This document shows positions 16,046 through 43,046 of a DNA stretch of 64,000 bases, in pieces. Both the position numbers and the translations under genes were made by a program. The DNA comes from Gavia stellata (taxonomy: Eukaryota; Chordata; Aves; Gaviiformes; Gaviidae): positions 102,589,334-102,653,333 of the forward strand of contig NC_082595.1 in NCBI RefSeq assembly GCF_030936135.1, written 5' to 3'. Positions within the stretch are counted from its first letter, which is position 1. Every line of letters begins with the position of its first letter. Below the pieces are notes generated by a model. The model was given only the letters and a program-made list of their open reading frames with translations, did not search any database and was not told the DNA's origin.

Positions 16046-18192
16046 ACCCATGTGCCGTAAGAAGAGCCGGCGGGGAAGACGACTGGCCTGGCTGAACAAG
16101 GAGCTTTTGCTGAGACTCGGGGGAAAAAAAGAGAATTTATCACCTCTGGAAGAAGGGGCAGGCAAGTGAAGAAGAGTACAAGGACCTCGTTAGGTCATGC
16201 AGGGAGGGAATTAGGAAGGCAAAAGCCCAGCTAGAGCTCAACCTGGCCACGGTCGTGAGGGACAACAAAAAAAGCTTCTATAAATACATTAACAACAAAA
16301 AGAGAGCCAAGGAGAATCTCCATCCTTTATTGGATGCGGCGGGGAACATTGTCACGAAGGATGAGGAAAAGGCTGAGGTACTTAATGTCTTCTTTGCCTC
16401 AGTCTTTAATAGCCAGACCAGGTATCCTCAGGGTATCCATCTCCCTGAGCTGGAAGACAGAGATGGAGAGCAAAATAGGCTCCCCATGATCCAGGAGGAA
16501 GCAGTTAATGACCTGCTATGCCACCTGGACACTCATAAGTCTATGGGGCCTGATGGCATCCACCCAAGGGTGCTGAGGGAGCTGGCAGAGGAGCTTGCCA
16601 AGCCACTTTCCATCATTTATCAACAGTCCTGGTTAACGGGGGAGGTCCCGGAGGACTGGAGGCTTGCCAATGTGATGCCCATCTACAAGAAGGGCTGGAA
16701 GGAGGATCCAGGGAACTACAGGCCTGTCAGCCTGACCTCGGTGCCGGGGAAGGTTATGGAGAGGCTCATCTTGAGGGCGCTCATGGGACACGTGCAGGAT
16801 AACCAAGGGATCAGGCCCAGCCAGCACGGGTTCATGAAGGGCAGGTCCTGCTTGACCAACCTGATCTCCTTCTATGACCAGGTGACCTGCCTAGTGGATG
16901 AGGGAAAGGCTGTGGATGTTGTCTACCTGGACTTCAGCAAAGCCTTTGACACTGTCCCCCACAGTATTCTCGTGGAGAAGCTGGCGACTTGTGGCTTAGA
17001 CAGGTACACTCTTCACTGGGTAAAAAACTGGCTGGATGGCCAAGCCCAGAGAGTTGCGGTGAATGGAGTGACGTCCAGTTGGTGGCCGGTCACAAGCAGA
17101 GTCCCTCAGGGCTCAGTTTTGGGACCGGTCTTGTTTAATATCTTTATTGATGATCTGGATGAGGGGATAGAGTGCTCCCTCAGCAAGTTTGCAGATGACA
17201 CCAAGTTGGGAGGGAGTGTTGATCTGCTCGAGGGTAGGAGGGCTCTGCAGAGGGATCTGGACAGGCTGGATGGATGGGCTGAGGGCAATTCTATGAAGTT
17301 CAATAAGGCCAAGTGCCGGGTTCTACACTTTGGCCACAACAACCCCATGCAACGACACGGGCTTGGGGACGAGTGGCTGGAAAGCTGCCCCACAGAAAAG
17401 GACCTGGGGGTGTTGATTGACAGCCAGCTGAAGATGAGCCAGCAGTGTGCCCAGGTGGCCAAGAAGGCCAACGCCATCCTGGCCTGTATCAGAAAGAGTG
17501 TGGCCAGCAGGAGTAGGGAGGTGATCGTGCTCATGTACTCGGCGCTGGTGAGGCCGCACCTCGAATACTGTGTTCAGTTTTGGGCCCCTCACTACGAGAA
17601 GGTCATTGAGGTGCTGGAGTGTGTCCAGAGAAGGGCGATGAAGCTGGTGAGGGGTCTGGAGCACAAGTCTTATGAGGAGTGGCTGAGGGAACTGGGGTTG
17701 TTCAGTCTGGAGAAGAGGAGGCTGAGGGGAGACCTTATCGCTCTCTACAACTACCTGAAAGGGGGTTGCAGAGAGGTGGGTGTTGGTCTCTTCTCCCAAG
17801 TGAAGAGTGACAGGACAAGAGAAAATGGCCTCAAGTTGCGCCAGGGGAGGTTCAGGCTAGATATTAGGAAAAAGTTCTTTACTGAGAGAGTGGTGAAACA
17901 CTGGAACAGGCTGCCCAGGGAGGTAGTGGAGTCACCCTCCCTGGAGGTATTCAAGGAGCATGTGGATATGGCATTGTGGGATGTGGCTTGATGGGCATGG
18001 TGCTGTGTGGTGTGGGTGGGTTTTTTTGGTGTGGGTGGTGGTGTGTTTTGTGGTTTGTGGGTGGTTTGGTGGTTGTGGGTTTTTTTTGGGGGGGGGGTGT
18101 TTTTTGTTTTGTTTTTTGGGTTTTTTTTTTAGGTTGGACTTGATGATCTTACAGGTCTTTTCCAACCTTAGTGATTCTGTGATTCTGTGATT
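16046..18192 (+). mobile_element. CR1 LINE, 5'-truncated, nearly intact ORF2 3' portion
   Basis: A 2.1-kb CR1 non-LTR retrotransposon copy starts inside ORF2 (CRKKSRRGRRLAWLNKELLL) just after an A-rich run. It carries the reverse transcriptase, then a short GT-rich 3' UTR and the CR1-specific end: GGTTGGACTTGATGATCTTA, TCTTTTCCAACCTTAGTG, and repeats of GATTCTGT to about 18192. No poly(A) tail is present, as expected for CR1. The 5' end is typical of truncated insertions. The 5' boundary is approximate. Confidence 0.93.
16126..17991 (+). CDS. CR1 ORF2 reverse transcriptase (5'-truncated)
   Basis: About 620 codons are open without interruption to TGA at 17991. Order: the pre-RT segment ([20 protein letters not shown]), RT motifs with [16 protein letters not shown], the catalytic [13 protein letters not shown] (motif A, about 16924-16962), [19 protein letters not shown], and [11 protein letters not shown] (FADD motif, about 17182-17214), then the thumb and the C-terminal CR1 tail ([37 protein letters not shown]). 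All visible catalytic aspartates are present. The frame is shifted against the first 25 codons of the element by one base in the run GGGGGAAAAAAA at 16119-16130. The enzyme would copy CR1 RNA by target-primed reverse transcription, but the endonuclease domain and ORF1 are missing, so this copy cannot move by itself. Confidence 0.9.
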
Positions 18193-23472: not shown

Positions 23473-24256
23473 TTGTAGGATCATAGAATGGTTTGGGTTG
23501 GAAGGGACCTTAAAGATCATCTAGTTCCAACCCCCCTGCCATGGGCAGGGACACCTTCTACTAGATGAGGTTGCTCAAAGCCCCATCCAACCTGGCTTTG
23601 AACACTTCCAGGGATGGGGCATCCACAACTTCTCTGGGCAACCTGTTCCAGTGCCTCACCACCCTCAGGGTGAAGAATTTCTTCCTAATAGCTCATCTAA
23701 ATCTACCCTCTTTCAGCTTAAAGCCATTACCCCTTGTCCTATCACTACATGTCCTTGTAAAAAGTCCCTCTCCAGTTTCCTTGCAGGCCCCTTCAGGTAC
23801 TGGAAGGCTGCTATAAGGTCTCCTCGGAGCCTTCTCTTCTCCAGACTGAACAACCCCAACTCTCTCAGCATGTCTTCATAGGAGAGGTGCTCCAGCCCTC
23901 TGATCATCTTCGTGGCCCTCCTCTGGACTTGCTCCAACAGGTCCCTGTCTTTCTTATGTTGGGTGCCCCAGAGCTGGACGCAATACTCCAGGTGGGGTCT
24001 CACCAGAGTGGAGTAGAGCGGGAGAATCACCTCCCTTGACCTGCTGGTCACACTTCTTTTGATGCAGCCCAGGATACGGTTGGCTTTCTGGGCTGCAAGC
24101 GCGCGCGCGCTGCCGGCTCATGTTGAGCTTCTCATCAACCAACACCCCCAAGTCCTTCTCCTCAAGGCTGCTCTCAATCCGTTCTCTGCCCAGCCTGTAT
24201 TTGTGCTTGGGATTGACCCAACCCATGTGTAGGACCTGGCACTCGCATTGTTGAAT
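23473..24256 (-). mobile_element. CR1 LINE fragment, minus strand
   Basis: The 3' end is at the left (ATCATAGAATGGTTTGGGTTGG, then AAGGGACCTTAAAGATCATC, reverse-complement CR1 tail). Upstream on the minus strand follow ORF2 pieces: [77 protein letters not shown]. One frameshift falls at the (GC)6 run at 24099-24110. The insertion is 5'-truncated at about 24256. Confidence 0.93.
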
Positions 24257-24814
24257 CTTGGGGGCAGATGTGCCCAAACTGCCCCTCACTTACTGCTGAG
24301 CTTCTCCCAAAGTCCAGTGCAGCTCCTTCTGAGGGACACACAGGTCTCTCTGAACTTCTTCCCCCAAGTGAGTTTCAGCCCCTGGTCCCATTCCAGACTT
24401 TAGTTTATGAAAATGCAGCCAGATACAACTCCCCGTCTCTCACGGGCTGGATGGGTTGGGGGGAGCTTTCGAACAGTCTGATGCATTGCCAGAGATGGCG
24501 GAGAGCAAATGGGATCCAGATGTGTCCTCCAGCATGAGCCTTTACTTTCAGAAGGAATTTTCCCAGATCTTTCCCCAGATTTTGTTGTCAGGGTTTCTCT
24601 CATGACGTACAGCCGCCTGGCTTCCCTCCAGCTCCTGCCCATCAGTATCGGCTTCCCAGGGGGAGAAGGTATGGCCAAAATACTGCCTGCTCCCCTCCAT
24701 CAATGCAGCCTACTGCCTGTCTTCTGTCCCTTACACCCAGGGAGTGGAGGGCTGATCCTCTTGGGCACCCTGAGCTACCCCAGACCCCCCACCAGCCTCT
24801 CACCCCACTTCAGA
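24257..24814. other. Spacer between two inverted CR1 copies
   Basis: Unique-looking sequence of about 560 bp separates the minus-strand and plus-strand CR1 insertions. No gene is seen. Confidence 0.6.
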
Positions 24815-35064: not shown

Positions 35065-35658
35065 TTACAAAATTAGGCTGCGCCTGTAGTGCCTCTTTCT
35101 CCTCCTTTTCTCATTTAATGTGCATTGGCTAATAATCTCCAGGCCTGTATCAACACCTTCTTTTGTCTTGGCAGAACACTCCAGGTAAGCATATGCCCCT
35201 ATCCTGGCAGCTAAAGCTTTTCCTTCTGTAGTGTTAACTGGCTCGTTGCCTGGAGTAGTTAGTTTCTTCTTAATACCTTCATCACCCCTTAGTTCTATCT
35301 TGGTAGCCACCAGAATAATAGGTACTGTGGGGCAGAACAGTTTGATTTCTGGAACCCAAAAATCGAGGATGTTTTGCTGTGAGTCAGGCCTGTCCACAGA
35401 GAAGCACATTAAAATAACATCGGTGTCCTTGTAGAACACTGAGCGGAGATTTCAGTAACTGAATTCATTCTTTCCTGCCACATCGAAGACAATTAGTTTC
35501 ATCTCCTTCCCATCTACCTCTGTGTCAGTGGTGTAAGTGTCAAACAGAGTTGGCTCGTAGGACTTGGGAAGGTGTTCATGATGCAGAGCAAAGAGAAGGC
35601 ATGTCTTACCACAGTGGTCATCTCCAATTACAGTTAGCTTTCTCCTAGGAGCAGCCAT
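35065..35658 (-). pseudogene. Intronless, diverged Rho GTPase copy with one in-frame stop
   Basis: On the minus strand the frame runs from ATG at 35658 to TAA at 35065: 198 codons against 197 for RHOB. About half the residues equal RHOB by eye. Kept are MAA.R.KL, CGKTCLL of the P-loop, Y34/T37/F39 of switch [35 protein letters not shown] and [13 protein letters not shown]. The SVD, WVPE, LVA and [10 protein letters not shown] residues match RHOB rather than RHOA or RHOC. Changed are G14 to D, A15 to H, Q63 to K, and NKKD to TKIE. Codon 69 is TGA, in switch II, with two extra codons around it. The tail is polybasic and ends SLIL instead of a C-aaX box. No introns or poly(A) tract were seen. 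It could be a dead RHOB duplicate or retrocopy, or a recently lost paralog. As it stands, translation would stop at residue 68. Confidence 0.85.
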
Positions 35659-38600
35659 CCCTTGAAAACCAAGATGAAGTACCAAACGGATTATTCCCAT
35701 GCTGGGTTTTTTTTTTAGCTTTTGTAGTGGGTAGAAGGAGAAGAGAAGAGAAATCCCATTAGTTTGGAATTCTTCCCCTTATCTCTTTTTTTTTCTCCAT
35801 ACACCTGTCTTACATTCATTCCCTATTTATTTCCCCTTTCAATTTCTCTGGTATCAGAATCTTCTGAAATTGTGAGCATCTTGCTCTTAACTATTTTTAT
35901 AGATCAAAAAATGAAGGTATAAACCAAGTCTGGATGTAACCAAGGTTCCTGCAGTGCCCTGTATTTCTGTTTTATCATCTCAGACATTGTTTATTGTCAG
36001 TGTTCAGTCCATAACAGATTTCATTTTCCAGATTGAATGACTTAATTTTGTGAGTATAAAACACTGTACTGAACAAATATCCAAATAGGTTTTACTGACT
36101 ACATTTTTCCTGCCATGGTCTCCTCGCAGAATTCTACCAGTGGTGATAGCTATCTTGTGTGAGTCCATGCTGCTTTTGCTCATAGATCTGTTGTCATGTG
36201 GGAGTTAAGAAAGTGTTCTCAGTCTTCATATATTTACAGTTAATTTATATGAGATAGAAGTTTGTTAGACTTACAGGATCGTAATTTCCAGCATCAACCT
36301 TCTTCTCTTTCTTGATGTTCAGTATTAGACTGGTTTCTTCTAATATTGTTGTGGCCTCATCTTCCTCAGATCACTCGTTTCCCTGCAGAGAGAACTTACC
36401 ACCATTCTTCAAAGACTATCATGATGGCCACAGTATTTAAAGGAATAGGTTGATGTTTCTTAATACAGCCAACCAATCTACAAAGAGAAACTGATGACAT
36501 CATTGTTTTTTAAAGAAACCTACTTTACTGGCAATAAAGTGGAAGTTACACAATTCATTAACAAATCACAGCATGTTTACTTTAGAGATTTCCTCGTTCC
36601 TATTGCAAGAGGCTCATCCTGAGTGAGCATTTCAGTACTGAGTGTGCCAAAATACTTTTGTGGGGGGAGCTGACAGTACTAGTGTAAAACAGTGGTAGAC
36701 CTGCCAGATAGATAGACCCTCCAGACACCCCTTTCCAGATCTGCTGAGGCATTGTAGAGAAATGAATTGAAGAATCAAAGAATGGATGAGGTGGGAAGGG
36801 ATCACCTAGCCCACCCTGCCCTGCTCAGAGCAGGATCAACTACAGAAGGCTGATCAGGACTGTGTCCAGTTTGGTTTTTAATATCTCCAAGGATGGAGAC
36901 TCCACAGCCTCTTTGGGCAGCCTTTTCCAGCGTTTGATCATCCTCAAAGCAGTGAAATTAAGTCTATCAACTGGAGACTCCAAAGAGAAAGAACCATCCA
37001 GTGTTAAGGGTACTATCTTGAGCTCCAGAGATGAAGACTGAAATCCCTGCTATCTTGTTTGCATTGGACAAGTCATCTCCATTCTCTCTGACTCAGTTTT
37101 CCTGGTAGACAAAGACTGCAAGGTGTCTGCAACCACTGAAAACAGAACAAATGGAACCAGAAGTAGATTACTTTGGTCTCTATGCAGAAAGAACTGTTTC
37201 CAAAGGCGTTATTGGTGATGCAGATACCTAACTGCTGATTAGTATAGTTATGTGGTCAGCCCATTTATTTCATACAGCTACAGAAGATTCAACTTCAACT
37301 TCTGCTTCTCAACTTCAACTGAGATAAGGGTTTTTAGGTCTAAAAATTTTAGCCTAAGGATGAGGAACTTGTTTTTGTTTAATTTGAAGTCAGCTGGAGA
37401 CCTGAGGCCACTTTAGTTTTCTGTGGTGGTCTAATTTTACTCTGCCAGACCATATTTCCTGAGTCCTATTCAAGTATGAATCTGATAGTCTTGCCATATG
37501 AACTTGACGAAATTAAAGTCATCAGCTTTTGACTTGCCCCACTTATTCCCTGGAAGAACAATGCCAGCAGGTCCCATACAGCTCTTTAGGATCATGGAGG
37601 CATTTCTTGTTTGGGACGATGTGCTTTCATGTGCACTGTACTTAGCCTAAACATGTGTATGAAAATACACAGGTCTTTTTCATCTTCTCTTTTTGTGCCT
37701 TGGCATTCCAGTTTCTACGTCGATCAGCCTGGCTTCTCTGCTGAGAACGCCTATCACAAGGGGATCTGAGAGTTAAATTCTGTTTTTCTTCAGGGACACT
37801 GGAAAGCAATGGACCTGCTGTGACACGCAACAAGTGGTCTGGTTCCTATACATGCCAGAAACTCTTAGCAGCTTAGAGAGACAGATACTTAGCATTTCTG
37901 CCTGTCTTCCCACATCTACTCAGAGCTTTTTCACACTAGCCTGTAAACTGCTTATTTTTAGCTAGCTCTTGCTTTCCTTACTTCACTGAGCAGCTTTGCC
38001 TGCATGAGGACTGCAGGATGCTTGTTGCTAGCGTTACAGTACAAGTCAACGTGCAGGGCTCAGTATGCCATTACTGGCACATACGGCTCCCTCAGCACGT
38101 TATGCCACAGCAGGCAATATACTTACTTGCCTACTTATTGACAGAAAGGAGAAAGATTACCTTCCCCACTGAGCTTTCACGCTTTTGGTACAGATTTATG
38201 CTTGAACACAAATTATCTGAGTTACAGACATGCCCTTTAGAAAATCTGTTTAGCAAAAAGAGCAGGGGGGAAATATAATCTGGAAACAATCTCCAGTAAT
38301 TGACCAGAATTGTCTTCTAGGCAACAGAAAATGCCAATTGGATTAAATCAAGTAAAAAACAAAAGGCTGAGTTTTAATCTCAAAACCACCAGCACAAGCA
38401 ATGAAAGCAAACAAGTGGTGTCTTCTTTCTCCTACTTCATACTTTCTTCATCAATCATACAGATGTATGTGGTGCAACAGAACTAATGCTCTGCTTAGAG
38501 AGTGCACATTTAGGCATAGCTGGAAGTGAAGTTTCAGCTTGCTTAAAGAAGTATAGTTTAGCATCTCATGCAAATTTCATGAGAAAATATAAAAATTACA

Positions 38601-42132: not shown

Positions 42133-42455
42133 GCGGCGCCGGCCCGCAGCTTGCAGCAGTGGCAGCGCGGAGGGGAGGGAGGTGGTCGGGGAGCGGCAGC
42201 GTTTCCCCCGCGAAGGGCCGAGCCGAGCCGGGCGGGACTGGCGGCGCTTGCTGCGGCCGTAGCGCTCCCCTGAGGCGGGGGACGGAGGTACGGTGCCGGT
42301 GCGGGGAGAGAGGAGGGCGCGCCCGCCTGCCTGCGCGGGCCCGGCTCGCCACGGTGCCCTGTGAGAAGCGAGAGGAAGGGGGAGGCGGCGGCCGCGGGGA
42401 GGAGGGCGCTGCCATCGTCCTGCTGCACGGCAAGGCCAGCTTGGCGAGCCTGGCC

Positions 42456-43046
42456 ATGGCCGCCATCCGCAAGAAGCTGGTGGTGGTGGGAGACGGTGCC
42501 TGTGGCAAGACCTGCCTCCTCATCGTCTTCAGCAAGGACGAGTTCCCCGAGGTCTACGTGCCCACTGTCTTCGAGAACTACGTGGCTGACATCGAGGTGG
42601 ATGGCAAGCAGGTGGAGCTGGCCCTGTGGGACACGGCTGGGCAGGAGGACTACGACCGCCTGCGCCCCCTCTCCTACCCAGACACCGACGTGATCCTCAT
42701 GTGCTTCTCTGTGGACAGTCCGGACTCGCTGGAGAACATCCCGGAGAAGTGGGTGCCCGAAGTCAAACACTTCTGCCCCAACGTCCCCATCATCCTGGTG
42801 GCCAACAAGAAAGACCTGCGCAACGATGAGCATGTGCGCAACGAGCTGGCCCGCATGAAGCAGGAGCCGGTGCGCACTGAGGATGGCCGTGCCATGGCCA
42901 TTCGCATCCAGGCCTATGACTACCTGGAGTGCTCGGCCAAGACCAAGGAGGGTGTCCGGGAGGTCTTTGAGACTGCCACCCGGGCAGCCTTGCAGAAGCG
43001 CTACGGCACCCAGAATGGCTGCATCAACTGCTGCAAAGTCCTATAG
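42456..43046 (+). CDS. RHOB: RHOB small GTPase, single coding exon
   Basis: A 196-residue intronless Rho GTPase. The ATG at 42456 is in strong context (GCCATGG), gives the standard N-terminus [19 protein letters not shown], and is the first ATG after the promoter. Seen in order: P-loop GDGACGKT (12-19), effector loop with T37, DTAGQ (59-63), NKKD (117-120), SAK (160-162). The end [10 protein letters not shown] carries Cys189 and Cys192 (palmitoylation in mammals) and the prenylated Cys193 of the CAAX box, which sets RHOB apart from RHOA and RHOC. RHOB binds GTP/GDP, sits on endosomes and plasma membrane, and acts in vesicle traffic, actin control and stress-induced death. Known as an immediate-early, short-lived product, which fits the CCAAT promoter and the AU-rich 3' UTR. 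Length and sequence look normal and functional. Confidence 0.99.

What the first reader, a model, noticed from the sequence alone, without database searches (positions are those of the whole stretch)
35065..35658. A diverged, intronless Rho paralog head-to-head with RHOB, open except for one stop
Against RHOB, roughly half the residues have changed, yet the frame holds for 198 codons with only small in-frame length changes and a single TGA. A neutral retrocopy at that divergence would be expected to carry several frameshifts and stops. This suggests long selection on a functional protein followed by recent loss, or use by readthrough. Residues that separate RHOB from RHOA/RHOC ([25 protein letters not shown]) are on the RHOB side, and it lies 6.8 kb from RHOB in opposite orientation. 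That favours local duplication of intronless RHOB over random retroposition.
Basis: partly seen in the sequence, partly recalled or inferred. Interest (0 to 1): 0.8.

Follow-up and report, generated by a model that had tools for sequence, protein, structure and literature searches.

The report
Broken copy of ancient RHOB-like GTPase
This bird carries a freshly broken copy of a little-noticed Rho-type switch protein that many other birds, crocodilians and turtles still keep, and whose active site looks as if it were permanently switched on.

Summary
In detail: a 198-codon, intronless Rho frame lies on the minus strand at 35658→35065, head-to-head with RHOB (6.8 kb), broken by one TGA (codon 69). 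It is not a RHOB retro-pseudogene. [quoted passage not shown] Their tree recovers several accepted bird groups, as vertical inheritance predicts. The window copy has six private residue changes among bird rows; two look crippling, the TGA and Ser for the CAAX cysteine. Best reading: recent, lineage-specific loss of an old gene. The family has its own anatomy: the Ras-12 Gly is Val in 9 of 9 reptile rows (RHOA G14V is activating) and Asp/Glu/Asn in 55 of 56 bird rows; G4 is TKxE; switch II carries two extra residues. This predicts a GTP-locked or fast-cycling Rho, like Rnd/RhoH but from the RHOB side; that is inference. The prenylation tail looks eroded in several lineages. Seven paper searches showed no title on this gene. 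Synteny elsewhere, expression and branch dN/dS could not be tested.

The parts
35065..35658 (-). Decayed RHOB-like GTPase coding sequence (ATG 35656-35658, terminal TAA 35065-35067), single coding exon
35452..35454 (-). In-frame TGA at codon 69, inside switch II; the column is Arg (31) or Gln (26) in 57 of 57 bird rows and Gln in 9 of 9 reptile rows
35602..35625 (-). G1 box GDDHCGKT (codons 12-19); Ras-12-equivalent position (14) is Asp instead of Gly
35458..35463 (-). Two-codon insertion in switch II (codons 66-67, Phe-Ser); both columns are filled in 57 of 57 bird and 9 of 9 reptile family rows and empty in RHOB
35293..35304 (-). G4 box TKIE in place of NKKD (codons 119-122)
35068..35079 (-). 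Former CAAX box: SLIL where intact bird rows mostly have CRIL or CQIL; prenylated cysteine lost
35659..35700 (-). Upstream in-frame extension MGIIRLVLHLGFQG, 12 of 14 residues shared with records P0002 (unnamed) and P0038 (unnamed, hoatzin-like); conserved 5' sequence, possibly untranslated
42456..43046 (+). Intact intronless RHOB (196 aa, ends CKVL), divergent neighbour

Best explanation
The feature is a unitary pseudogene: the recently disabled ortholog of an old, fast-evolving RHOB-like GTPase gene found in birds, crocodilians and turtles. It most likely arose by duplication or retroposition of intronless RHOB next to its parent, before birds, crocodilians and turtles split (shown: distribution; inferred: mode and place). 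In species that keep it, the protein should be a Rho GTPase, in most rows membrane-anchored by a CAAX box, that sits mostly in the GTP state or cycles fast. The reasons: the Gly needed for GAP-assisted hydrolysis is Val or Asp, bird rows also lack the catalytic Gln, and the guanine-binding NKxD is TKxE, while the nucleotide-contact residues Lys18, Thr37, Asp59, Gly62 and SAK remain (shown: residues; inferred: biochemistry). Output would then be set by expression level and membrane attachment. In this bird, TGA at codon 69 removes everything after the first third, and Cys-to-Ser destroys the prenylation site, so even a readthrough product could not be anchored by its CAAX.
For: Orthologs: one search lists 65 bird rows (59 named as birds, 6 unnamed but bird-like) and 10 turtle or crocodilian rows; one search adds two turtle rows. 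TKxE occurs in 73 of the 77 family rows and in none of the other 66 of 143 proteins listed over the three searches; the switch II spacing is 13 in the 74 family rows scored, 11 in RHOB; a tree of 62 rows recovers turacos, cuckoos, gulls with tern and auk, herons, kagu with sunbittern, and galliforms; window end branch 0.068 against a median of 0.055; six private residues in 197 columns among bird rows (Q29H, L57V, R/Q69 stop, A172G, C194S, R195L); 4 deviations at 80 strongly conserved columns; 10 of 57 other bird rows have as many or more. Ras-12 position V in 9 of 9 reptiles, D51/E2/N2/G1 in 56 birds; Ras-61 position K54/N2/E1 in 57 birds, Q in 9 of 9 reptiles; T119 in 66 of 66; E122 in 63 of 66. 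Selection. RHOB side. That changes at the Gly12-equivalent make Rnd and RhoH constitutively active is stated in passages of PMC13236570 and PMC6321241.
Against: Loss of the CAAX cysteine alone does not prove death: 5 of 9 reptile rows have Phe there and keep open frames. One TGA could be a sequencing error or a segregating allele. The free tree does not join the family to RHOB, and columns 29 (mostly) and 143 lean to the RHOA/C or ancestral state. One bird row (Hydrobates, P0023) has Gly at the Ras-12 position, and one (P0043) has Met for the G4 Lys. A review argues that RHOB itself already behaves as constitutively active (PMC13236570 passage), which narrows the contrast. Database proteins are biased to open frames. 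No DNA of relatives was available, so synteny and branch dN/dS are untested. The model of an intact ortholog was poor (mean pLDDT 60.7), and the RHOB control with the same rows reached only 73.0.
Confidence: 0.85

Rival explanations
1. An ordinary neutral retro-pseudogene of RHOB (or RHOA) in this lineage.
For: Intronless, RHOB-like, carries a stop.
Against: Intact orthologs in birds, crocodilians and turtles; synonymous excess and too few stops for neutral decay; the insertion and G4 change are shared with the family.
Confidence: 0.02
2. The gene is still used in this bird: TGA is read through, is an assembly error, or is a rare allele, and the protein works without prenylation.
For: Only six private residues; 10 of 57 other bird rows deviate as much or more at conserved columns. 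Several turtle rows lack the CAAX cysteine but keep open frames.
Against: Two separate lesions, in switch II and in the CAAX box. After the stop the frame has no ATG until Met84, so a restart would lack G1 to G3.
Confidence: 0.1
3. On origin: the family is not RHOB-derived but an older Rho paralog (for example a lost vertebrate whole-genome-duplication copy) that survives only in birds, crocodilians and turtles.
For: The free tree leaves the family as a long unresolved branch (0.56) beside RHOB, RHOA/C and invertebrate Rho; Gln29 in most rows and Glu143 in most rows are not RHOB states.
Against: RHOB states at 7 of 12 diagnostic columns; single coding exon and position beside RHOB in the window; clade with RHOA/C rejected (p-AU 0.027). 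No member in fish, amphibians, mammals or squamates among the best 120 rows.
Confidence: 0.2
4. On mechanism: in species that keep it, the protein is a pseudo-GTPase that no longer binds nucleotide and acts as a scaffold.
For: G4 is TKxE in 73 of 77 family rows; switch II insertion; Gly17 to Ala in one gull row.
Against: Lys18 in 57 of 57 bird rows, Thr37 in 56 of 57, SAK nearly invariant, as expected if nucleotide binding is selected.
Confidence: 0.2

Closest known systems
RHOB
   Same: Intronless; neighbour in the window; RHOB states at 7 of 12 diagnostic columns; the crocodilian tail CTSCEVL has two cysteines like the Cys-rich CINCCKVL of RHOB
   Different: About half the residues differ; Gly14 replaced; NKxD to TKxE; two-residue switch II insertion; bird tail polybasic, mostly with CRIL or CQIL
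Rnd1-3 and RhoH (GTPase-deficient Rho proteins)
   Same: No Gly at the Ras-12 position; in bird rows also no Gln at Ras-61; hence predicted constitutively GTP-bound
   Different: Sequence affinity is with RHOA/B/C; the CAAX box ends in Leu, which by general knowledge predicts geranylgeranylation rather than the farnesylation reported for Rnd and RhoH
Unitary pseudogenes of conserved genes
   Same: Few lesions in a copy whose orthologs are intact elsewhere
   Different: Erosion of the prenylation tail seems to recur in separate lineages of the same family

Membership tests
Rho family GTPase | Ras-type G domain with G1-G5 boxes | tested here: met
   Pfam Ras on both halves of the window copy and on four orthologs; G1 and G4 deviate
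Archelosaur RHOB-like family (this gene) | Non-Gly at Ras-12, TKx[E/D] G4, two-residue switch II insertion | tested here: met
   Window: Asp14, TKIE, Phe-Ser insertion
Archelosaur RHOB-like family (this gene) | Adjacent to RHOB in carriers | not testable with these tools
   Only protein rows of relatives were available; true in the window
RHOB orthologs | Keeps Gly14, Gln63, NKKD and a CxxCCKVL-type tail, groups with RHOB | tested here: not met
   Residues not kept; grouping with RHOB neither found in the free tree nor rejected; a separate intact RHOB lies in the window
Functional gene in this species | Open frame and CAAX cysteine | tested here: not met
   TGA at codon 69, Ser194
GTPase-deficient Rho proteins (Rnd/RhoH class) | Substitution at Ras positions 12, 59 or 61 | tested here: met
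   Position 12 in 64 of 65 scored rows, position 61 in 57 of 57 bird rows but 0 of 9 reptile rows; likeness, not descent
GTPase-deficient Rho proteins (Rnd/RhoH class) | Measured lack of GTP hydrolysis | not testable with these tools
   needs biochemistry
Neutral processed pseudogene | No intact orthologs; substitutions spread evenly over codon positions | tested here: not met

The most novel reading that the evidence does not exclude
Birds, crocodilians and turtles carry a fourth RHOA/B/C-type GTPase that has been locked on for some 250 million years (date recalled) by a native change at the position where RHOA G14V is an activated mutant: a natural, Rnd-like constitutively active RHOB paralog, evolved independently, which is repeatedly detached from membranes and lost.
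Probability: 0.45. Interest if true: 0.7.

Novelty: new variant of a known kind. Interest (0 to 1): 0.52.

Why it matters
The census of Rho GTPases is usually mammal-shaped. The chicken row of one published table lists RhoA, RhoB, RhoC, RhoG, RhoJ and RhoQ in the Rho column and no further RHOB-like gene (PMC7600811, passage); I did not see a chicken row in my lists either, though turkey, pheasant and guineafowl are there. A RHOB-side paralog with a native activating-type residue would be a natural experiment on how cells live with an always-on Rho. Its apparent repeated loss and tail erosion would give independent contrasts between species with and without it. Intact orthologs are filed as RHOA, RHOB or 'RHO', so studies of RHOA and RHOB in birds may mix the genes up.

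Tried and rejected
A neutral pseudogene of RHOB was rejected. Origin from RHOA/RHOC was rejected at p-AU 0.027. No UTR homology to RHOB was seen: blastn between the two regions gave only two hits at E below 0.001, both coding (137 and 45 bp); none is expected at this age. No poly-A run of 8 or more lies within 2 kb downstream, and the nearest AATAAA is 657 bases past the stop: no retrocopy signature, which is uninformative for an old copy. Structure prediction was uninformative: mean pLDDT 60.7 for the storm-petrel ortholog and 73.0 for the RHOB control with the same 49 rows. A Foldseek search of the poor model returned Rho chains, mostly RhoA, with RhoC, RhoB and a yeast Rho1 among the 50 rows shown. 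The species of the window could not be named; its protein falls within Neoaves without supported sister rows. Seven paper searches gave no title about this gene: 10 of 10 listed; 3 of 3; 8 of 8; 0; 3 of 3; 15 of 9,166 listed; 15 of 120 listed. [quoted passage not shown] led to passages of PMC13236570 and PMC6321241. No bird order was shown to lack the gene: rows are 90% clusters whose members are not listed.

Full report
What is there. On the minus strand, 35658→35065 reads as a 198-codon Rho-type GTPase frame from ATG to TAA with a single in-frame TGA at codon 69 (35452-35454) and no frameshift. Both halves match Pfam Ras (57.4 and 53.7 bits, cut-off 21.6). An intact, intronless RHOB lies at 42456-43046 on the plus strand; the start codons are 6,798 bp apart and the genes point away from each other. 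The copy and RHOB share 100 of 195 aligned residues, and the copy has two extra codons in switch II.

It was under selection. Differences to RHOB fall 69, 55 and 120 on the three codon positions of 195 codons; pS is 0.72 and pN 0.32. In 2,000 simulated neutral decays of RHOB to the same nucleotide divergence the mean number of stops was 5.95, one stop or fewer occurred in 1.45%, and residue identity never exceeded 39% against 51% observed (indels not modelled; synonymous sites near saturation).

Relatives. A protein search with the window frame (X at the stop) lists, in its best 120 rows, 65 bird rows (59 named, 6 unnamed but bird-like; 74-91% identical) and 10 turtle or crocodilian rows (58-63%). 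All but one of these 75 (P0113, with an odd end) outrank the best ordinary RHOB row, P0110. Some long Rho proteins of fish and invertebrates rank among them; the two I read (P0053, P0125) hold two G domains. [quoted passage not shown] Carriers range from kiwi, rhea and emu through galliforms to many Neoaves. A second search with a crocodilian-turtle profile added two turtle rows (P0128, P0129), and a third with a central part of the alligator protein added none. No squamate, mammal, amphibian or fish member was seen among the best 120 rows of each. Over the 143 proteins listed in all, the TKxE motif is in 73 of 77 family rows (the other four have TKxD) and in none of the other 66. Rows stand for 90% clusters, so absence of a bird order from the list proves nothing.

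For the column counts I used 57 of the 65 bird rows (dropped: P0027, P0038, P0054, P0061 as near-copies and P0090, P0099, P0100, P0105 as fragments) and 9 of the 10 reptile rows (dropped: P0113). A tree of 62 rows (55 bird, 6 reptile, window) has the reptiles on one side at 100% and recovers turacos, cuckoos, gulls with tern and auk, herons, kagu with sunbittern, and galliforms (that these are accepted groups is general knowledge). That is what vertical inheritance of one gene gives. The window copy lies within Neoaves, end branch 0.068 against a median of 0.055; 31 of 59 inner branches are weak.

The loss. Only six of 197 window positions are private among bird rows: Q29H, L57V, the stop at 69 (Arg in 31 and Gln in 26 of 57 birds), A172G, C194S and R195L. 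The stop can come from an Arg codon by one change. Ser194 replaces the cysteine of the CAAX box, present in 44 of the 46 bird rows that reach it. At 80 columns at least 95% conserved the window deviates 4 times; 10 of 57 other bird rows deviate as much or more. The body of the protein is hardly eroded, so the loss is recent. Readthrough would give a protein without its prenylation site.

Tail erosion recurs. Of 46 bird rows that reach the CAAX cysteine, 40 end in a CAAX box. Two galliform rows (turkey, grouse) run on six residues past it, two are cut at the cysteine, and bee-eater and tody have an out-of-frame-looking tail. In reptiles, 3 of 9 end in CAAX, one keeps the cysteine but runs on, and 5 have Phe for Cys. 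Frameshift and stop loss are my reading of protein rows; no DNA of relatives was seen.

Likely mechanism in carriers. The residue equivalent to Ras Gly12 is Val in 9 of 9 reptile rows and Asp 51, Glu 2, Asn 2, Gly 1 in 56 bird rows. The residue equivalent to Ras Gln61 is Gln in 9 of 9 reptiles but Lys 54, Asn 2, Glu 1 in 57 birds. G4 is T-K-x-E, or T-K-x-D in three of the 57 birds, with Met for Lys in one. Lys18, Thr37, Asp59, Gly62 and SAK are kept almost throughout. Passages of two reviews state that Rnd proteins and RhoH are constitutively active because the Gly12-equivalent (and positions 59 and 61) are changed, and that RhoA G14V is a constitutively active mutant (PMC13236570; PMC6321241). 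The first also argues that RHOB itself behaves as constitutively active. I infer that this family is GTP-locked or fast-cycling. No biochemistry supports it, and a nucleotide-free scaffold is possible.

Origin. In a 24-row tree the family is one clade (100/100) on a long branch. Holding it with RHOB costs 1.8 log units (p-AU 0.358); holding it with RHOA and RHOC is rejected (p-AU 0.027). RHOB states are found wholly or mostly at 7 of 12 body columns that separate RHOB from RHOA/C, with column 29 (mostly) and column 143 on the other side. RHOB itself is described as an early vertebrate retrogene (passages of PMC5408686 and PMC5803294). A local copy of intronless RHOB is the simplest account; mode and synteny elsewhere are untested. 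The minimum age follows from the shared presence in turtles, crocodilians and birds (clade Archelosauria).

Structure. The model of an intact ortholog was poor (mean pLDDT 60.7), as was, less so, the RHOB control with the same rows (73.0). Foldseek hits shown were Rho chains, mostly RhoA. I draw nothing from this beyond a Rho-like fold.

In print. Searches showed no title on this gene, and a published census row for chicken lists no RHOB-like gene beyond RhoA, RhoB and RhoC (PMC7600811 passage). The intact gene is present in databases under other names, so it is new to description rather than to sequence.

Noticed in passing
16255-17991 (+): A 578-residue open frame with a reverse transcriptase domain (Pfam RVT_1, 120.7 bits); by recall it looks like an avian CR1 LINE.
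   Followed up: partly
23713-24289 (-): Two overlapping short frames that read like the C-terminal part of the same kind of LINE, in pieces.
   Followed up: no
P0018 (Rissa tridactyla ortholog), residues 12-19: G1 reads GDDRSAKT: the conserved Gly17 is Ala, a change that by recall yields nucleotide-free Rho mutants; might mark another lineage on the way to loss.
   Followed up: no
P0042, P0044, P0078, P0087 (roadrunner, bee-eater, unnamed, tody): These rows have 8 to 14 deviations at strongly conserved columns against a median of 2, suggesting further decaying or relaxed copies.
   Followed up: partly
42159-42455 (+): The RHOB frame is open for 99 codons upstream of its ATG; an open extension of 54 residues is in the unnamed record P0137.
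   Followed up: no
35659-35700 (-): Upstream in-frame stretch shared with two other bird-like records (12 of 14 residues); the TTTTCAAG two bases before the ATG could be a splice acceptor of a 5' UTR intron.
   Followed up: partly
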